This document shows positions 45,094 through 57,397 of a stretch of DNA of 64,000 nt, in pieces. Within the stretch, counting starts at the first letter, position 1; the number at the start of each line of letters is the position of its first letter. The translations under genes and the position numbers were made by a program. Where the stretch lies: NCBI GenBank assembly GCA_900177435.1, contig FXAI01000003.1:124001-188000 (forward strand). Direction: 5' to 3'. The notes under the pieces were generated by a model, which saw nothing but the letters and a program-made list of their open reading frames with translations, did no database searches and was not told the DNA's origin. The stretch is from Alteromonadaceae bacterium Bs31. Its GTDB lineage: Bacteria > Pseudomonadota > Gammaproteobacteria > Pseudomonadales > Cellvibrionaceae.

Positions 45094-45921
45094 CTAGTAA
45101 AGTAATGCCAACACCCACGCAAAAGAAGGTTCACCAACTTTGCCGTGCTTTACGTCAAACTGTTCAAAATAAATATTCTCTTTAGGGTAGGCATTACTGA
45201 GCATTAGTTTAATAAAGGTTTGGGTCTCCGTATCATTCCCTCCCCGCAACGCGCTGCTTATAAATATTTTTGGATGGCTTGGCCAATCAAAGCCCTCAGC
45301 GTGCTTAATATATTCTTCGAACCAGCCAATTTGGTATAAATACTCAGCATCGGTATCAAATGCTGCGTCAAACAATAAATAGCTGCTAAATTGTAAATTC
45401 GTTATTTCCTGATCAATCAACATTACAGCGGCAAATGCGCCACTAAGGGATATTCCGGCCAAGGTTCTTTTGCCCGCTTCGATGCGATAGTTTTTTTCAA
45501 GCTTGGGGATTAGCTCATCCTTAAGAAAAAAAGAGTACTCAAGTGCCCCTCGAGGGCCATAATCCAGCAAACGCCTATTTTTTTGTCCCTCTCCTATACC
45601 CACCAAGATCAAAGGTAAGCGCTGTGCGGCGACCAGGCGTGCATAGCGGGAAAACACCCAATGGCCGTCGAGAATATAAATCACAGGGAAGCGTTGCTGT
45701 TTATTTTTGTTGTAGCTTGCGGGCAGATAGATATCAATAGGGTAATCGCTATCTGTTTGTTCAGAGTAAAAAGTAAATTGAGGCAGGCGCTGACCAGAAA
45801 CTTCAGCGTTCATCTGAAGGCAAGCCACCAAGCTATAAAAGAGCATAGCCGCAGCGGCGAACAATAAAAGAATTAGAATAAAAGCGAGGCTAATTAGCAA
45901 GCGGGGCTTGAATTCCGCCAT
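45094..45921 (-). CDS. Membrane-anchored esterase of the alpha/beta-hydrolase (esterase D-like) type
   Basis: 275 residues. An uncleaved N-terminal helix (8-34) anchors a periplasmic alpha/beta hydrolase domain. FPVIYILDGHWVFSR (~78-92) is the oxyanion region and GISLSG (~155-160) holds the nucleophile Ser; the catalytic His is probably in DVKHGKVGEPSF near the C-terminus. Similar folds include feruloyl/acetyl-xylan and siderophore esterases. Starts two bases after the stop of the GH2-like gene upstream, so the two form a transcription unit; a shared glycan-related role is inferred. Confidence 0.82.
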   Translation of the reverse strand: MAEFKPRLLISLAFILILLLFAAAAMLFYSLVACLQMNAEVSGQRLPQFTFYSEQTDSDYPIDIYLPASYNKNKQQRFPVIYILDGHWVFSRYARLVAAQRLPLILVGIGEGQKNRRLLDYGPRGALEYSFFLKDELIPKLEKNYRIEAGKRTLAGISLSGAFAAVMLIDQEITNLQFSSYLLFDAAFDTDAEYLYQIGWFEEYIKHAEGFDWPSHPKIFISSALRGGNDTETQTFIKLMLSNAYPKENIYFEQFDVKHGKVGEPSFAWVLALLY

Positions 45922-45923
45922 AG

Positions 45924-47021
45924 CTATTTTTCTAAATCTTGCAGGTCCTTCTTGCGAACAATAGCGACGGGCCCTTGATAGATACCGCCTTCGCCGCCAT
46001 GATCGAACACCCGCAGGTCGAGCACATTTTCCTCTTTTAAGAGGGAAGAAGAAAACTCGTAGCGGCGCATAAGCTTGAAGTAATGAGAGTCCCGCTTTTT
46101 ATCAATTTTGGATAAGCTGCCGGTTCGGCCAATAAACTCACCGTTAAGCGTCACCTCTTCCGTATCATCAATTTTACCCAGCAATAACACCAGCTTTTCG
46201 TCTGGCTCTACATCCAGCGCACCGAAGCTTTTGCGGTAGTATGCCATGCCGTCATAGTCACCATAGCCTTGTTGCTCCCAGACACCAGGCACCTGAATAG
46301 AATGGAAGTCTTTGCTCTCGTCCACTCGAAACTGCCACTCGCCTTGCAGGCTAACTAGCGGCCTGGGCATATTGGAGGCATAAATGCCAATGTGCTCACC
46401 AACAATTCCGCCGCCTTGCTGAGCGTCATAGACTCGCAGAGCAATCACATTTTTACCTTCCCGCAGCAGTTCAGCCGGCAGAGGGTAATCCCGCCGCTGG
46501 TTCCAAGCGCTTATATAGGTTGGAGGTACTCCACCCATACCGCCAACTTTCTGGCCGTTTAGGAAGGCTTCGTCGGCATCATCAATGGTCCCCAATGACA
46601 AAGAGAGCGTGCGCTTTAGATCCGCAGCGCTCAGCGTCAGCTCTTTTCTGTACCATGCAAAACCGTCATAGCCCTTAAAGCCCTGCCACTCCCAGCGACC
46701 GGGAACCTCAACCTCGGCCCACTCACTATCATCAAAATCTTCCGCTGCCCATGCCATATCGTCACCCACACTAAAATGCCAGATGCCATCAAGTGCCACG
46801 ATCTGCTTGCTACCCTCATCTATCTTGAAGGTAGAAAAGGTCTCCTTATTTTTTGCCTTATTAAGGTAGAAAAAAATGCCCTTGTTGTTGATGGCATTGA
46901 AGCTTGCCAGCGGAATAATAATGGCCAGGCCGACTAATACGGCAATCAGATTACGTTTAGCTCTGTGACTTTGCATGGGAAGGTGCAACTCGTTGCTTGT
47001 CATTGTTGTTAGGTCCAGCAC
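45924..47021 (-). CDS. Membrane-anchored protein with two GH2-type sugar-binding domains, no catalytic domain
   Basis: 365 residues. An N-terminal helix (about 24-43) is followed by two tandem jelly-roll domains of the glycoside hydrolase family 2 sugar-binding type. The first is at about 75-220 (LDGIWHFSVG, VEVPGRWEWQGFKGYDGFAW) and the second at about 225-358 (LQGEWQFRVDE, VPGVWEQQGYGDYDGMAYYR). In family 2 enzymes this domain precedes the catalytic barrel; here no barrel follows and the protein ends. A periplasmic glycan-binding or scaffold role is plausible. Co-transcribed with the esterase. Confidence 0.82.
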   Translation of the reverse strand: MLDLTTMTSNELHLPMQSHRAKRNLIAVLVGLAIIIPLASFNAINNKGIFFYLNKAKNKETFSTFKIDEGSKQIVALDGIWHFSVGDDMAWAAEDFDDSEWAEVEVPGRWEWQGFKGYDGFAWYRKELTLSAADLKRTLSLSLGTIDDADEAFLNGQKVGGMGGVPPTYISAWNQRRDYPLPAELLREGKNVIALRVYDAQQGGGIVGEHIGIYASNMPRPLVSLQGEWQFRVDESKDFHSIQVPGVWEQQGYGDYDGMAYYRKSFGALDVEPDEKLVLLLGKIDDTEEVTLNGEFIGRTGSLSKIDKKRDSHYFKLMRRYEFSSSLLKEENVLDLRVFDHGGEGGIYQGPVAIVRKKDLQDLEK

Positions 47022-49055: not shown

Positions 49056-49088
49056 AAAAAGCCCCAGTGACAAAACCGGGGCTTTTTT
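49056..49088. terminator. Intrinsic terminator (bidirectional)
   Basis: AAAAAGCCCC (49056-49065) / GGGGCTTTTT (49078-49087), 10-bp stem with a 12-base loop, T tract on plus and A tract on minus side. It lies downstream of the minus-strand CBM protein gene and ends its transcript. Confidence 0.85.
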
Positions 49089-49115: not shown

Positions 49116-50717
49116 CTAACACTCACCGGGTACAGTGCTTAGCACTGCAGCATTTGCACACGCACTACAGGAATTACCTGCTGTGTAGGTGCTGCCGTCT
49201 GCACGGGTGGCGCATACAGGGTCCCATAGAGCGGTACACACCTCCGGGCGAGGCTCGCTGCATAGTTGAGCTTCAGGCTCCTTGCTTGGCTCTGCACCAC
49301 GGTTTGCACAAAATCCCACAGAGGTATTTACCTCGCCAGGCTGTAAGGTGCCATTCCACGCTACGCCTTCGACATTGAGTTGCGCACCGCTCTGGCTCCA
49401 ATTGGCGTTCCATAAGCTGGATACCTGGCCCTCAATAGTTAGTGAGACATTCCAGCTCACAGCACTGCTACTGGTATTTTCAACAACCAGAACTGCGCAG
49501 TAGCCTTCACCCCAGTCGTTATTGATATCCACATCAGCAACAACCTCGCCCTGACCTCCGCTGGAGCTGCTGGATGAACTTGAACTGCTGCTTGTGCTGC
49601 TGCTAGAAGAACTGGAAGAGGAACTCGAACTACTTGATGAAGAAGAGGAAGTACTCGATGAGCTGCTACTGGAACTGCTAGAGGAAGAAGAGGATGAGCT
49701 CGAGTTACTGGAAGATGAGCTCGAAGACGATGAAGACGATGAGCTTGAGCTGGAACCCTCAATCGCGCAATAGCCATGATTAAAAAATACTTCCAGTGGT
49801 AAATGGGAATCCACCTCATAGCGTGTTTGTGTAATGTAGCCGAAAGACGATTCAGCTCCGGGCTGGAGCGTACCATTCCAGCTGCCAGCATCATTGGAAA
49901 CAACCAGCTCGTCGAGCGCACTGTTGTAGTATTCACTTGAAAAATCTGCGTTCCAGCCTGAGGAAAACTCCTGCCCGTAACGCAGCAACCAGCGAGCAGT
50001 GTACCCGTCGATAGTTTCATCTGATGTATTGGTGATTGTCACATTAAACTGGGACTGCCCCCATCCTGGCATTTCATCAAAACGAATATCGCAAAGCTGT
50101 GGAATATCTTTTGGTGCAGGGGGGCAAGCTTTAACACCCCCACCATAACCACAGCCGCCGGAAGCGCCGCAATCAATGCTGAGGTTAAGCGAAACTCTAT
50201 CAATATTGGGGCCACCCTCTTCTGTAAGGGAGATTAAACGCACTCTATCTTTACCCGCTACAGAGCCTACCTGAATCATTTCACTGCCCCATACATCCCA
50301 GCCACCGGTGGGAGCGAAGGTAAACGCGTAATCATAGACTATATCAGCCTCTTCTATTTCCATACGCATTGGTCGGTCAAAGCTGGAGCCATTGGCATAT
50401 ACCACGTTAACGGTACTGTATCCCACAGCAGGTGGGCCGCCATCGATAATGAAATCGGGAAGCACTACGGTGCTGTATAAGGCATCGTCCACATTAAAGT
50501 AGTCTCCTTCTTTTGCGCCGGGGTTACGCCGCTCAATTACACCATCACTCCCTTCACAGGCTCGATTTCCCATAATCGTGGTTGCATACCAGGAGCCTCC
50601 ACTAGAAGAAGTAGAGCTTGTGGACGAAGACGAGCTACTGGAGGATTGTGCGATAACCTGTGCATTGATTAGTCCAAAAAGCGCAAAGGTAACTAGCGCG
50701 GGAATTAATTTATTCAT
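49116..50717 (-). CDS. Exported multi-CBM poly-serine protein with a C-terminal Kazal-like domain
   Basis: 533 residues, signal peptide 1-23, no catalytic domain. Order: short Ser linker (25-39); a beta-sandwich domain (about 41-183) resembling carbohydrate-binding modules of the CBM6/35 style; a CBM2-like domain (209-319; SWNGTLQPGAESSFGY at 279-294); a serine linker of about 65 residues broken only by Asn and Thr; a second CBM2-like domain (about 392-475; AWNGTLQPGE); and a Cys-rich C-terminus (about 486-533). The last reads CTALWDPVCATRADGSTY then CSACANAA...GEC, the spacing of Kazal-type protease inhibitor domains. Probably a secreted cellulose/xylan-binding protein that also inhibits proteases or uses the domain structurally. 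Confidence 0.85.
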   Translation of the reverse strand: MNKLIPALVTFALFGLINAQVIAQSSSSSSSSTSSTSSSGGSWYATTIMGNRACEGSDGVIERRNPGAKEGDYFNVDDALYSTVVLPDFIIDGGPPAVGYSTVNVVYANGSSFDRPMRMEIEEADIVYDYAFTFAPTGGWDVWGSEMIQVGSVAGKDRVRLISLTEEGGPNIDRVSLNLSIDCGASGGCGYGGGVKACPPAPKDIPQLCDIRFDEMPGWGQSQFNVTITNTSDETIDGYTARWLLRYGQEFSSGWNADFSSEYYNSALDELVVSNDAGSWNGTLQPGAESSFGYITQTRYEVDSHLPLEVFFNHGYCAIEGSSSSSSSSSSSSSSSSNSSSSSSSSSSSSSSSSSTSSSSSSSSSSSSSSSSSSTSSSSSSSSSSSGGQGEVVADVDINNDWGEGYCAVLVVENTSSSAVSWNVSLTIEGQVSSLWNANWSQSGAQLNVEGVAWNGTLQPGEVNTSVGFCANRGAEPSKEPEAQLCSEPRPEVCTALWDPVCATRADGSTYTAGNSCSACANAAVLSTVPGEC

Positions 50718-51178
50718 ATTTTATTATCTCCTGTTTATTGCTCGCATTTTAGTGGCACACCGGCCTATTGAGATAAGCCTCGGCAGCGCCTTTGCGAGAC
50801 CTTGATCATAAATCTTATAAATAGAAAAAGATAAATGTTATCTGTTATGAGCTGGAGCAGGAGTTATTCAAATTCGAAATTTATTTTTAGGTGAGGACGC
50901 TAAAAGGCACATGAGGGCATTGGATGTGTTATTTGTACTTGGCGCGTATAAAGCAAACTGAATTATCTACAAACCCTGTCACAAACTGGCGCTTTAGAAG
51001 TGCGCTCTCCCCGCTTAAGTCCCGCAAATAAAAAACTCGATTTAATCAATTAAAAAGCGCCTTCTTTTACTTAGCCTTTACCCACACCATGCTGCCTCCC
51101 TGAAAACGTCCAAATTCTTCTTTAATCGAAAAAACCGGCTGGGCCTTAATAAAGCCGGCGAAACACACCAGCGCTATT
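50718..51178. other. Intergenic region upstream of the CBM-Kazal gene
   Basis: 461 bases between two minus-strand genes. Left part: presumably the promoter of the CBM-Kazal gene, AT-rich around 50800-50840, with no clear hexamers. Right part: the terminator of the LytTR gene at 51127-51160. Nothing else recognised. Confidence 0.4.
51127..51160 (-). terminator. Intrinsic terminator of the LytTR gene
   Basis: On the minus strand CCGGCT (51158-51153 region) pairs with AGCCGG (51140-51135) and is followed by TTTTTTCG. Eighteen bases after the stop of the LytTR gene. Confidence 0.75.
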
Positions 51179-52060
51179 TTACACCAGCGCTTTAAATGCA
51201 TTCCTATAGCGACGAGAAAGGCTCAGCCTTGTACCGTCTAGCAGGATGAGTTCGTAGTCTCCACTCTCCAGTGGGCGCAGTGTTTTAACTTGATTAAAGT
51301 TAACAATCGCTGAACGATGAATTCGGGCGAATTTTGCTACCGGCAAAGCCTGCTCAAGCTTGGTCATTGTCGTGCGCATGGGGTACAAGCTGCTGCCAAT
51401 GTGCAGATTGGCATAATTACCGGCAGCCTCTATCCATTCAATATCGTTCACATTCACAAGAAACTCCTTGCCAAGTTTCTTTACCAGAAAACGCTCCGGC
51501 TGCTTTTCCTCAGGGTTCGCTTCCTGCTCGCCTTCACCCACCAGGCTGGCCTCGCCATGGAGGCGCCGTACAATAAAACGGTAGCTAAAAATAAAAGCCG
51601 CAATAACAACGTAGGAGTAAAAGTCCTTACGGTACTCGTAAAGCAATTCATAAGGGATATCGCCAAAGGTATACCTTGTGCCCACCACCCAATACCAGAG
51701 CTTGCGCAGCGCCACCATGCCACCAACATGTATTGCTGAAAAAGGAATCGTCAATAACAGGTGAGCGAGAATCTGTTTTTTAAGCGATAGATCTGTAAGC
51801 CATTTATCCGATATATAGACAACACAGGGGATCAGCAAAAGCACCATAAAAATGCTGGTAATCTCCCAGCAAAACGGCTGCCAAAAAGACAGCTGATTAC
51901 CATCTCGACCGTGCTCCAAAATAATCGTGGTGGCGAGTACTAACACATTGGAAATCGCCCACAGCAACAACAAACCTGGCGCCCATAGACGCTGGTGCGA
52001 TAAAAAATGCCGGGTAAGGGCCGAGTGCTGCTGTGTTGTCATAGGTGACAGTATGTCCAT
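51179..52060 (-). CDS. Membrane-bound LytTR transcription regulator
   Basis: 293 residues. Four predicted membrane helices (about 28-48, 62-84, 93-116, 148-166), a short linker, then a LytTR DNA-binding domain (about 190-290). The domain reads FLVKKLGKEFLVNVNDIEWI, EAAGNYANLHIG, FARIHRSAIVNFNQV and LSLSRRYRNAFKAL. No histidine kinase or receiver domain: a one-component membrane regulator of a type common in marine gammaproteobacteria and Bacteroidetes. A second ATG at codon 7 is possible. Divergent from the acyltransferase gene, the most likely target. Confidence 0.88.
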   Translation of the reverse strand: MDILSPMTTQQHSALTRHFLSHQRLWAPGLLLLWAISNVLVLATTIILEHGRDGNQLSFWQPFCWEITSIFMVLLLIPCVVYISDKWLTDLSLKKQILAHLLLTIPFSAIHVGGMVALRKLWYWVVGTRYTFGDIPYELLYEYRKDFYSYVVIAAFIFSYRFIVRRLHGEASLVGEGEQEANPEEKQPERFLVKKLGKEFLVNVNDIEWIEAAGNYANLHIGSSLYPMRTTMTKLEQALPVAKFARIHRSAIVNFNQVKTLRPLESGDYELILLDGTRLSLSRRYRNAFKALV

Positions 52061-55117: not shown

Positions 55118-57397
55118 ATGCACAATCAAGCTTCACAACAGCATTTCCGCTCGCGCATCATCGCCGCAGCGGCATTACTGCTGGTTTTTTTCACTTCCCA
55201 GGCCTTCGCGCTGGAGTGTAGTTATAAAACCACCAACGACTGGGGCAGCGGTTTCACCGCCAGTATTACCCTTAGCAATAACGGAGAAACGACAATAAGT
55301 GGATGGCAGGTCAGCTGGCAACAAAACGGCGGATCACAAATAAGCAGTCTTTGGAATGCCAAGTACTCAGGAGACAATCCCTATTCAGCAAGCAATATGG
55401 GCTGGAACGGAAATATAGCAGTGGGCAACTCTGTGAGCTTTGGTTTTCAGGGTGAGGGTAGCGATTCCACGGGAACTATTACGCAATGCCTGGCAGAAGG
55501 TGGCACTAGCTCCTCATCGTCCAGCTCAAGCTCCAGCAGCTCTTCTTCAAGCACATCCAATTCCAGCTCCAGTAGCTCATCTTCTAGCTCTAGCAGCTCA
55601 TCTTCTAGCTCTAGCAGCTCATCTTCTAGCTCTAGCAGTTCGTCCTCCAGCTCTGGGGCCCTAGGCTGTGTGGATATGTGCAAGTGGTATCAGGATGAGC
55701 CACGCCCCTTGTGTACTAATCAAGACAACGGCTGGGGCTACGAAAACAACCAGAGCTGTATTGGTGTTAATACCTGTAACAGCCAGTCCGGTAGCGGTGG
55801 CGTTGTATCGGTTTGCAACGGCAGCTCTAGCTCGTCCAGTTCTAGCAGTTCCAGTTCCTCCTCATCTTCCAGCTCTAGCAGTTCCAGCTCCTCCTCATCT
55901 TCCAGTTCGAGTAGCTCCAGTTCCAGCTCGTCTAGCAGCTCATCGTCTGGTGGAAGCTCCAGTTCAAGTAGCAGTTCATCATCAAGCTCAAGCAGCAGCT
56001 CCTCTGGCAGCACAGGAAGCAACACAATAACTGTGCGAGCCGCCGGTAATGCAGGCACAGAGCACCTCACCATCAAAGTGGGCGGCACCGCCATTGGCGA
56101 TTTTACCCTTAGCACTACCATGGAAGATTACACCTTCGAAACCAATGCCGGTGGCGATGTAAAAGTGGTTTATGACAACGATGCTGGAAATGCGGATGTG
56201 CAGATCGATTACGCCGTAATTAATGGTGTTACCCTGCAGGCAGAAGATCAGCCAGATAATACCGGTGTGTGGAACAGTGGTCAGTGCGGCGGCATCGCCT
56301 CTGAATGGCTGCAATGCAGTGGCCATATTGGCTTTGGCTTCCTCAGCCCTGGCGAGCCAGGAGAGTCAACGGGTACCGGTTTGTTTACTCATGCGGATTT
56401 CCCCATTGGTATGGCGGTTTCTGGACCGGGAGAAAACCGCAGTTTCCTTGATATTGCTGAAAAGCAGGTGTCCATCAACGAGCACTTCGGAGAGCTCACA
56501 GCGGGTAATATCATGAAGATGAGTTATCTGCATCCCGCCGAAGATCGCTACAACTGGGATAACGCAGAACAGATGCTCAATTGGGCAAACGCGAATGGTA
56601 AAAAGGTTCACGGGCATACCTTCATCTGGCACTCCGATTATCAGATTCCCAACTGGATGAAGAATTACAGCGGCGATTTCGAAGCCATGCTGGATGAGCA
56701 CGTCAGAACCATTGCTACGCGCTTTAAGGGCAGAGTTGTGAGCTGGGATGTGGCCAACGAAGTCATTAATGAGGCCAATAATTGCTGGCGCGACTCAGTG
56801 TTTTATCAAAAGCTCGGCAAGGATTTTGTTGCCAATGCTTTCCGCGTGGCCAACGAAGCGGATCCGGATGTTGACCTTTATTACAACGATTTTGACACAG
56901 AAGGCGGCAACACAGCCAAGCTATCGTGCTTGTTAGAATTAGTGGATGAACTGCAAGCTGCAAACGTGCCCATTGACGGTGTTGGCTTCCAAATGCATGT
57001 GCAAATAGACTGGCCAAGTACCAGCGCAATCGCCAGTGCCTTTCAGGCCATTGTTGACCGCGGCCTGAAGGTGAAGATTACGGAACTGGATATTCCGCTC
57101 AATAACCCGTGGGCGAGCGCTCCTTTTCCACAATATACAGCCTTCACCGACGCTGCAGCCGAGCGCCAGAAACAGCGCTACAAGTCCATAGTGCAAACTT
57201 ACCTGGATACCGTACCGGCACACTTGCGTGGTGGTATTACGGTATGGGGGCTGTGGGACGGTGACAGCTGGTTGTTGGAGCTGGGCTCTCGACAGGGCAC
57301 TGCCGATTGGCCCTTACTCTTTTCCGGCCCTGCAAACGGGCCTTATGAAGCCAAACCGGCACTAGATGGCTTTATTGAGGCGCTGGACGGCCAGTAA
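55118..57397 (+). CDS. Secreted GH10 endo-xylanase: CBM2 - CBM10 - CBM60-like - GH10
   Basis: 759 residues, hydrolyses internal beta-1,4-xylan bonds outside the cell. Signal peptide 1-31; CBM2 33-125 (Cys34/Cys124, WNGNIAVGNSVSFGFQG); serine linker; CBM10 about 181-233 (CKWYQDEPRPLC, GWGYENNQSC); second serine linker; a CBM36/60-like calcium-type xylan-binding module at about 303-408 (ITVRAAGNAGTEHLTIKVGG, VDGVTLQAED-like core, CGGIASEWLQC); GH10 domain 420-757. Acid/base Glu548 is in WDVANEV and the nucleophile Glu656 in KITELDI; WHSDYQIPNW is also typical. Architecture matches Cellvibrio/Teredinibacter/Saccharophagus xylanases. Strong terminator follows. Confidence 0.95.
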   Translation: MHNQASQQHFRSRIIAAAALLLVFFTSQAFALECSYKTTNDWGSGFTASITLSNNGETTISGWQVSWQQNGGSQISSLWNAKYSGDNPYSASNMGWNGNIAVGNSVSFGFQGEGSDSTGTITQCLAEGGTSSSSSSSSSSSSSSSTSNSSSSSSSSSSSSSSSSSSSSSSSSSSSSSSSGALGCVDMCKWYQDEPRPLCTNQDNGWGYENNQSCIGVNTCNSQSGSGGVVSVCNGSSSSSSSSSSSSSSSSSSSSSSSSSSSSSSSSSSSSSSSSSSGGSSSSSSSSSSSSSSSSSGSTGSNTITVRAAGNAGTEHLTIKVGGTAIGDFTLSTTMEDYTFETNAGGDVKVVYDNDAGNADVQIDYAVINGVTLQAEDQPDNTGVWNSGQCGGIASEWLQCSGHIGFGFLSPGEPGESTGTGLFTHADFPIGMAVSGPGENRSFLDIAEKQVSINEHFGELTAGNIMKMSYLHPAEDRYNWDNAEQMLNWANANGKKVHGHTFIWHSDYQIPNWMKNYSGDFEAMLDEHVRTIATRFKGRVVSWDVANEVINEANNCWRDSVFYQKLGKDFVANAFRVANEADPDVDLYYNDFDTEGGNTAKLSCLLELVDELQAANVPIDGVGFQMHVQIDWPSTSAIASAFQAIVDRGLKVKITELDIPLNNPWASAPFPQYTAFTDAAAERQKQRYKSIVQTYLDTVPAHLRGGITVWGLWDGDSWLLELGSRQGTADWPLLFSGPANGPYEAKPALDGFIEALDGQ
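55571..55640. repeat. 21-bp tandem repeat in the first serine linker
   Basis: Three copies of a 21-bp unit (AGCAGCTCATCTTCTAGCTC plus T, one mismatch in the first) at 55571-55591, 55592-55612 and 55613-55633, plus a partial fourth. Each encodes seven serines, so copy-number change would alter linker length in steps of seven without a frameshift. Other linkers in the window use mixed AGC/AGT/TCN codons with only loose repetition. Confidence 0.85.

What the first reader, a model, noticed from the sequence alone, without database searches (positions are those of the whole stretch)
49116..50717. Kazal-like protease-inhibitor domain on a non-catalytic multi-CBM poly-serine protein
The protein joins a CBM6/35-like domain, two CBM2-like domains, a serine linker of about 65 residues and a C-terminal Cys-rich segment with Kazal spacing (WDPVCATRADGSTY...CSACANAA...GEC). 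There is no catalytic domain. A substrate-bound inhibitor could protect secreted hydrolases from proteases on the plant polymer surface or inside a host. I know of no described system of this exact kind.
Basis: partly seen in the sequence, partly recalled or inferred. Interest (0 to 1): 0.65.

Follow-up and report, generated by a model that had tools for sequence, protein, structure and literature searches.

The report
Cellulose-anchored Kazal-type protease inhibitor
A wood-degrading marine bacterium from the shipworm-symbiont group makes a secreted protein that should grip plant cell walls with three binding domains and carries at its end a small domain built like animal-type (Kazal) protease inhibitors, perhaps to limit protein breakdown on the wood surface.

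Summary
The 533-residue ORF lies on the minus strand: signal-peptide-like start, short Ser tract, CBM35-type domain, CBM2, Ser linker (62 of 67 residues Ser), second CBM2 and a C-terminal six-cysteine domain; no catalytic family matched. The C-terminal domain is Kazal: isolated it exceeds Pfam's Kazal_1 cut-off (24.5 vs 21 bits; in the whole protein only 19.5), a 20-sequence profile finds ovomucoid in the PDB (E 1.3e-5), and its AlphaFold2 model (pLDDT 87.9) aligns best to Kazal structures. It belongs to a widespread bacterial family, mostly small lipoproteins, for which I found no functional work. The genus contains genomes whose sizes match Teredinibacter species (shipworm gill symbionts). 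In five of eight genus genomes a Kazal lipoprotein gene faces a GH5-CBM10(-CBM2) gene; the window protein's second CBM2 and Kazal domain are both closest to such a neighbouring pair in its own genome, so its C-terminal half probably came from that locus. No second CBM-Kazal fusion was seen in the samples examined. Most likely: a wall-tethered inhibitor of elastase- or subtilisin-type serine proteases (P1 Ala), analogous in role to cellulosomal dockerin-serpins. Inhibition and target are untested.

The parts
49116..50717 (-). Complete gene, 533 aa, non-catalytic CBM35-CBM2-polySer-CBM2-Kazal protein, predicted secreted
50728..50732 (-). AGGAG ribosome-binding-site-like sequence, 10 nt before the ATG
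   Evidence: read from sequence
50646..50717 (-). Signal-peptide-like start (residues 1-24, no lipobox Cys)
   Evidence: read by eye; no predictor was run
50598..50645 (-). Short Ser/Thr tract (residues 25-40)
50169..50597 (-). CBM35-type domain (residues 41-183)
   Evidence: profile A4 vs PDB, 2vzp E 3.3e-13; Pfam CBM_6 sub-threshold
49764..50096 (-). First CBM2 (residues 208-318)
   Evidence: Pfam CBM_2, two stretches in the protein; PDB 3ndy and 1exg E about 2e-4
49554..49754 (-). Poly-serine linker (residues 322-388, 62 of 67 Ser)
   Evidence: no near-identical DNA copy seen elsewhere in the genome
49296..49550 (-). Second CBM2 (residues 390-474)
   Evidence: Pfam CBM_2 395-478; closest relative G000:C41:59860-60114, 74% identity
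49119..49262 (-). Kazal domain (residues 486-533); predicted reactive bond Ala496-Leu497
   Evidence: P1 by alignment to ovomucoid
49056..49087 (-). Intrinsic-terminator-like hairpin directly downstream

Best explanation
A secreted, plant-wall-tethered Kazal-type serine-protease inhibitor. The signal peptide exports the protein; the CBM35-type and two CBM2 modules hold it on cellulose and hemicellulose; a short stretch after the last CBM2 presents the Kazal domain. The loop Cys494-Thr495-Ala496-Leu497-Trp498 (P3 to P2') would enter the active site of an elastase- or subtilisin-type serine protease in a substrate-like way and block it, so that wall-bound carbohydrate-active enzymes with protease-exposed linkers are spared where they work. 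Shown here: coding frame, domains, Kazal sequence family, predicted Kazal fold, conserved loop positions, relatedness to a GH5-enzyme/Kazal-lipoprotein locus. Inferred: secretion, wall binding, inhibition, P1 preference, protective role. Unknown: the target protease (host gut, competitor, or own).
For: Kazal identity: isolated domain 24.5 bits vs cut-off 21, and 20 of 20 members of A1 match Kazal_1 at E <= 1; family profile finds ovomucoid, E 1.3e-5; model pLDDT 87.9; rows 1-42 of the VIA-align list are Kazal-type inhibitors except row 40 (Fstl1), best 1ovo Z 4.7 (rmsd 2.8, 51 residues) and the elastase complex 1ppf_I Z 4.5 (rmsd 2.6, 51 residues). Inhibitor-like features in A1, whose rows were found by overall similarity: six Cys, Pro and Val of the loop invariant, Thr at P2 nearly invariant, P1 variable (M 11, R 5, Q 2, A 1, H 1), Asn two before the fourth Cys in 15 of 20 (16 of 26 in A5), the place of ovomucoid Asn33 (recalled). 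P1 Ala is accepted by a serine protease in ovomucoid (title of 1sgp). Tethering: CBM2, CBM35-type. Context: Teredinibacter GH5 and GH6 enzymes are said to lose CBM2 and CBM10 with their linkers by proteolysis in the shipworm caecum (earlier observation restated in PMC9653257, section 12 read), so proteolysis of such enzymes is real. Precedent of function: dockerin-serpins, suggested to protect cellulosomes (PMC5301203, passages). Gene intact.
Against: I found no inhibition data for this bacterial family. Kazal-like folds also occur in proteins that are not protease inhibitors (follistatin-like and complement modules, recalled; Fstl1 and complement C6 appear). Foldseek found no match at E <= 0.001 (best 0.45) and no VIA Z reaches 5. 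Kazal_1 is below its cut-off in the whole protein (19.5 vs 21) and for the closest relative, the C41 lipoprotein domain (18.3 bits; the whole ORF has no Pfam match at E <= 0.001). The domain has 14 rather than 10 residues between Cys3 and Cys4. Only one genome shows the fusion.
Confidence: 0.55

Rival explanations
1. The Kazal domain acts on the bacterium's own secreted serine proteases: it keeps them off the enzymes that share the wall surface.
For: The Trypsin model finds five places in the own genome; one is a full trypsin-type protein (E 7.1e-62, frame of 913 aa; trypsin part followed by LRR-like and calcium-repeat-like parts, read by eye), the others look HtrA-like or partial by eye. A trypsin-like protease is listed in T. 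turnerae secretomes (PMC12055684, passages), and two T. turnerae CBM proteins carry predicted serine-protease domains (PMC2699552, section 13 read).
Against: The trypsin has Asp at the specificity position (read by eye in GGQDSCHGDSGGP), which prefers Lys or Arg at P1 (recalled), while the inhibitor has Ala. No CBM was seen on it by eye. The only S8 match of the genome is a 67-aa frame.
Confidence: 0.15
2. The domain is a non-inhibitory Kazal-like module: a structural cap or protein-binding module at the C-terminus.
For: Kazal-like domains are appended to unrelated bacterial proteins: an alpha/beta hydrolase (L211), a META-domain protein (L103), an Ig/cadherin-repeat protein (L264). Follistatin-type Kazal domains need not inhibit (recalled).
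Against: The binding-loop positions (Cys-Thr-P1-x-aromatic-x-Pro-Val-Cys) are kept while P1 varies (M 11, R 5, Q 2, A 1, H 1 in the 20 rows of A1), as one expects of inhibitors.
Confidence: 0.22
3. The fusion is an assembly chimera of two poly-Ser genes.
For: Relatives of the N-terminal half end in CBM10-like segments, not CBM2-Kazal (L005, L006, L007; by eye); poly-Ser tracts are repeats that can mislead assembly.
Against: The linker DNA showed no near-identical copy in the genome (next best 69% over 174 bases; 40 of 133 candidates were scored). The CBM2-Kazal junction holds no repeat by eye, and its closest DNA relative that I aligned is only 70-73% identical. One continuous frame, followed by a terminator-like site.
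Confidence: 0.05

Closest known systems
Kazal-type inhibitors (Pfam PF00050; ovomucoid third domain, SPINK1)
   Same: Six-cysteine pattern, loop sequence pattern, predicted fold; profile and structure matches
   Different: Bacterial; 4 extra residues between Cys3 and Cys4; fused to CBMs; inhibition untested
Bacterial Kazal-like small lipoproteins (e.g. G000:C41:60164-60322; A1 matches in 64 of 293 genomes of the order)
   Same: Closest sequence relatives of the domain (54-60% identity to the C41 copy)
   Different: Those lie mostly in frames of 80-200 aa, and 73 of the 80 loci have a lipobox-like motif (rough pattern), so they are presumably envelope-bound; here the domain is on a protein without lipobox and with CBMs
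Dockerin-bearing serpins of cellulosomes (PinA of Clostridium thermocellum; Piromyces and Ruminococcus serpins)
   Same: Serine-protease inhibitor attached to a plant-wall-degrading system; suggested to protect it (PMC5301203, passages and cited titles)
   Different: Serpin fold and suicide mechanism (recalled), dockerin-cohesin attachment, anaerobes; here Kazal fold, direct CBM attachment, marine gammaproteobacterium
CBM35-CBM2-polySer proteins of relatives with a CBM10-like end (L005, L006; L007 with two CBM35-type domains)
   Same: N-terminal half 41-44% identical over 281-328 residues
   Different: They end in a CBM10-like segment (by eye; Pfam does not report CBM_10 for L006 and L007 at E <= 0.001); no second CBM2 and no Kazal domain
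Kazal-like secreted inhibitors EPI1/EPI10 of Phytophthora infestans
   Same: Microbial Kazal inhibitors secreted against a plant protease (stated in PMC10084794, passages)
   Different: Oomycete pathogen; no CBM (recalled)

Membership tests
Kazal-type serine protease inhibitor (MEROPS I1 / PF00050) | Sequence match to the family model above its curated cut-off | tested here: met
   Isolated domain 24.5 vs 21 bits; genome scan 23.1 bits, 0 of 14 control genomes over the cut-off. Against it: only 19.5 bits in the whole protein
Kazal-type serine protease inhibitor (MEROPS I1 / PF00050) | Six cysteines in Kazal order with C2-x7-C3 and C4-x2-C5 | tested here: met
   C486 x7 C494 x7 C502 x14 C517 x2 C520 x12 C533 (positions); C3-C4 is 14 instead of 10 as in ovomucoid (alignment)
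Kazal-type serine protease inhibitor (MEROPS I1 / PF00050) | Kazal fold | tested here: met
   Predicted model, pLDDT 87.9; rows 1-42 of VIA-align are Kazal-type inhibitors except row 40, Fstl1 (best Z 4.7); Foldseek's top three are Kazal but with E 0.45-0.62. A prediction, not a solved structure
Kazal-type serine protease inhibitor (MEROPS I1 / PF00050) | Disulfide pairing 1-5, 2-4, 3-6 (recalled) | not tested
   Model coordinates were not returned to me; only cysteine order was checked
Kazal-type serine protease inhibitor (MEROPS I1 / PF00050) | Tight inhibition of a serine protease | not testable with these tools
   Needs an enzyme assay
CBM2 | Match above Pfam cut-off | tested here: met
   PF00553, 83.8 bits vs 24, two stretches
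CBM35 | Sequence relation to solved CBM35 structures | tested here: met
   Profile A4 vs PDB: 2vzp 3.3e-13, 2w47 1.3e-10, 2w87 2e-9; that these are CBM35 is recalled
Cellulosomal dockerin-serpin | Dockerin plus serpin fold | tested here: not met
   No dockerin or serpin family matched; analogy of function only

The most novel reading that the evidence does not exclude
A shipworm symbiont has moved an envelope Kazal inhibitor onto wood: the protein coats ingested wood particles and restrains the proteases, of host or symbiont origin, that cut the linkers of symbiont cellulases in the gut. It would thereby set how long the enzymes stay attached to their substrate, an inter-kingdom control of digestion.
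Probability: 0.15. Interest if true: 0.78.

Novelty: new variant of a known kind. Interest (0 to 1): 0.56.

Why it matters
If the domain inhibits, this is a bacterial Kazal inhibitor delivered to the plant cell wall by CBMs, a second, independent solution to the problem that cellulosomal serpins are thought to solve. It would give a handle on which protease trims the CBMs from shipworm-symbiont cellulases (the trimming is restated in PMC9653257, section 12) and a ready-made module to protect enzyme mixtures on biomass. It also points to a large bacterial Kazal-like lipoprotein family for which I found no functional work.

Tried and rejected
PF07648 (Kazal_2) scan of the own genome: no match; PF00050 gave three. 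NCBIfam gave no match over a cut-off: linker and low-complexity matches, plus the CBM2 part of an exoglucanase model; the 40-aa Kazal piece matched nothing there. That scan's pattern fixed Thr at P2, M, A or R at P1 and Asp-Pro-Val, so the loop conservation in A5 and the P1 counts of its 80 loci (M 49, A 25, R 2, L 1 in the 77 that fit my pattern) are biased; I use the 20 rows of A1 for these instead.

Assembly chimera and frame artefact: considered and judged unlikely. A recently acquired animal gene: rejected, because the closest relatives found are bacterial, the best in the same genome. A CBM on the own trypsin: looked for by eye, none seen. An S8 target in the own genome: only a 67-aa frame. 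A second CBM-Kazal fusion: none seen (the full report tells what was examined and the limits). Kazal in shipworm papers: 0 papers hold both terms.

Full report
WHAT IS THERE. The ORF at 49116-50717 is on the minus strand and encodes 533 residues; the plus strand read in the frame has many stops. By residues: signal-peptide-like start 1-24 (by eye, no predictor run), Ser tract 25-40, CBM35-type domain 41-183, a Gly/Cys-rich hinge, CBM2 208-318, Ser linker 322-388 (62 of 67 Ser), second CBM2 390-474, and a Cys-rich end 486-533. Pfam finds CBM_2 in two stretches (E 1.2e-23), CBM49 just over its cut-off (23.6 vs 23.4 bits; its best stretch lies inside the first CBM2) and Kazal_1 at 19.5 bits, below its cut-off of 21. 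No catalytic family reached its cut-off in Pfam or NCBIfam. The gene has AGGAG 10 nt before the start and a 13-pair terminator-like hairpin 28 bp downstream (a consensus match only), so it looks like a complete single-gene unit.

THE N-TERMINAL DOMAIN. Five related domains (window, L005, L006 and two from L007; alignment A4) were made into a profile. It matches PDB chain 2vzp (E 3.3e-13) and 2w47, 2w1w, 2w46 and 2w87 (1.3e-10 to 2e-9). I recall these as CBM35 structures; the tool names only the parent enzymes. Pfam's CBM_6 is matched by all five rows at E <= 1, the window's below the cut-off (17.2 vs 28.9 bits). CBM35 is therefore a better label than CBM6.

THE KAZAL DOMAIN. The isolated 59-aa piece scores 24.5 bits for Kazal_1 (cut-off 21, E 2.8e-5), and 20 of 20 members of A1 match Kazal_1 at E <= 1. 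In the genome scan it scores 23.1 bits, over the cut-off; 7 of 14 control genomes give matches at the loose threshold used, none over the cut-off. Against: the closest relative, the C41 lipoprotein domain, scores 18.3 bits. Against all PDB sequences the single sequence finds Kazal inhibitors weakly (best E 0.008); the A1 profile finds ovomucoid at E 1.3e-5, and the first unrelated row is row 48 of 56 at E 0.29. AlphaFold2 on a 26-row alignment (A5) gave pLDDT 87.9 and pTM 0.65. Foldseek's first three PDB rows are Kazal inhibitors, with poor E-values of 0.45-0.62. The VIA-align second look lists Kazal-type inhibitors in rows 1-42 except row 40 (Fstl1), led by quail ovomucoid 1ovo (Z 4.7, rmsd 2.8 over 51 residues) and ovomucoid in complex with leukocyte elastase 1ppf (Z 4.5). 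The tool warns that Z under 8 can mean little alone; the purity of the list and the independent sequence evidence make the call. The cysteine spacing is C x7 C x7 C x14 C x2 C x12 C (positions); ovomucoid has 10 in the C3-C4 interval (alignment). By the same alignment the predicted reactive bond is Ala496-Leu497.

RELATIVES OF THE KAZAL DOMAIN. In the own genome the Kazal_1 model finds three places: this one, a 98-aa frame on contig C41 and a 237-aa frame on C25, the latter two below the cut-off. With A1, 64 of 293 genomes of the order match at E <= 1e-4 and 22 of 369 of the class at E <= 1e-5; the samples share at least G000, and at most 22 and 17 candidates per genome were scored. In the collection of named genomes 158 relatives were found, 80 kept: mainly gammaproteobacteria (many Psychrobacter and Halieaceae), with some Desulfobacterota-type bins, Caulobacter, Myxococcales and archaea. 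Of these 80, 73 have a lipobox-like motif in front (my own rough pattern) and 4 lie in frames over 200 aa. P1 in the 20 rows of A1 is M 11, R 5, Q 2, A 1, H 1.

IS THE CBM FUSION UNIQUE? What I examined: the five frames over 240 aa other than the window's (G344, G141, G155, G110, G245; read, the last three also by Pfam), the four such frames (G426, G716, two in G580; read; G426 by Pfam, the two of G580, G716 only by eye); all 80 loci for a run of six Ser (0 of 80) and for length, and the sequences of 42 of the 80 by eye. In the family, 100 genomes were searched with the domain; matches with E <= 1e-5 lie in frames of 86-193 aa except the window's. None of these showed a recognisable CBM. L264 has two repeated stretches that remind me of CBM9-type domains, but Pfam reports only Ig and cadherin families there, so I leave that open. 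Shorter frames were judged by length only. The 78 relatives dropped were not seen.

WHERE THE GENOME BELONGS. So the window's genus is very probably Teredinibacter; the named species come from shipworm gills (titles and abstracts). Whether this particular species lives in a shipworm is not known to me.

ORIGIN OF THE FUSION. Relatives of the N-terminal half in the genus (L006, L007) and in another genus of the family (L005) end in a segment with the CBM10 look (CNWYGW...GWG.EN..C, by eye; Pfam at E <= 0.001 did not report CBM_10 for the two genus proteins). The halves are 41-44% identical. The second CBM2 of the window protein has its best match among the eight genus genomes in the own genome at C41:59860-60114 (74%, 133 bits; next 63%, 125 bits, in G087; next in the own genome 61%). 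That CBM2 ends a GH5-CBM10-CBM2 protein (Pfam), and 46 bp beyond it, on the opposite strand, lies the Kazal lipoprotein gene that is the closest relative found of the window's Kazal domain (54-60%). In five of eight genus genomes (G000, G023, G045, G078, G083) the Kazal gene lies between a convergent GH5-CBM10-type gene and an rlmD-like gene (name recalled; no family search was run on it). In G061 the GH5 and Kazal genes are about 3 kb apart and no rlmD-like match was seen in the 18-kb stretch; G071 had no Kazal match and G087 only a weak one (E 0.06, with stops). The simplest account is that a copy of this locus gave the window gene its C-terminal half, with the Kazal part turned round. DNA identity is only 70-73%, so this is old or the donor was a relative; the inversion is inferred. 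A neighbourhood kept within one genus is weak evidence of joint function.

CHIMERA CHECK. The linker DNA showed no near-identical copy in the genome (best 69% over 174 bases; a few pieces of 31-54 bases reach 81-90%; 40 of 133 candidates scored), and the CBM2-Kazal junction holds no repeat by eye. An assembly error is unlikely but not excluded.

HOW IT LIKELY WORKS. The lipoprotein relatives would sit in the cell envelope; this copy lacks the lipid anchor and has CBMs, so it should act on the plant wall. Inhibition would follow the substrate-like loop mechanism of Kazal proteins (established for the family, recalled). Ala at P1 points to elastase- or subtilisin-like targets rather than trypsin (recalled preference); the own trypsin-type protein has the Asp that prefers Lys or Arg. 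Proteolysis matters in this niche: symbiont GH5 and GH6 enzymes are reported to lose CBM2, CBM10 and linkers in the shipworm caecum (PMC9653257, section 12 read), and T. turnerae encodes CBM proteins with predicted serine-protease domains (PMC2699552, section 13 read). The steps from fold to inhibition to protection are inferred.

LITERATURE. Kazal with carbohydrate-binding module and bacteria: 12 papers, listing read, passages of two. Kazal with lipoprotein, Pseudomonas and protease inhibitor: 19 papers, listing only. Kazal with prokaryot, inhibitor and MEROPS: 15 of 23 listed. Shipworm with Kazal: 0. Kazal with domain-fusion words: 12 of 7,594 listed, a weak search. Kazal, Teredinibacter, Cellvibrio, Saccharophagus, any two: 8 of 118 listed, none of the 8 holds Kazal. 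Five phrases on bacterial Kazal proteins: 0. None of what I saw describes a CBM-Kazal protein. The library lacks most subscription journals.

VERDICT. A real, well-formed and rare architecture that extends a known principle. Its value rests on an inhibition test that is easy to do.

Noticed in passing
L064:8381-10436 (G000:C41), L042, L190, L191, L192: Conserved convergent pair in the genus: GH5-CBM10(-CBM2) gene facing a small Kazal lipoprotein gene, next to an rlmD-like gene, in 5 of 8 genomes.
   Followed up: partly
L125:3437-4375 (Candidatus Woesearchaeota MAG): An archaeal protein with a lipoprotein-like start (by eye) and four Kazal stretches (Kazal_1 E 3.2e-36).
   Followed up: no
L211 (G426:C79), L103, L098, L087: Kazal-like domains appended to an alpha/beta hydrolase, a META-domain protein, a lipoprotein with an uncharacterised C-terminal part, and a possible DUF4214-type protein (last label recalled).
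   Followed up: partly
L045-L050 and others: A subfamily of the Kazal lipoproteins has an insert with two extra cysteines (CVTTPC type) between Cys3 and Cys4 (8 of 20 rows of A1).
   Followed up: no
window 55118-57397 +: GH10 xylanase-family protein with CBM2, CBM10 and CBM60 modules.
   Followed up: no
window 45924-47021 -: Protein with a GH2 sugar-binding-type match only, no GH2 catalytic match, next to an esterase-family gene at 45094-45921.
   Followed up: no
window 51179-52060 -: LytTR-type regulator gene upstream of the CBM-Kazal gene, same strand, about 460 bp away.
   Followed up: no
G000:C45:164104-164259 (L194): The only subtilisin-family match of the genome is in a 67-aa frame, possibly a gene remnant.
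   Followed up: no
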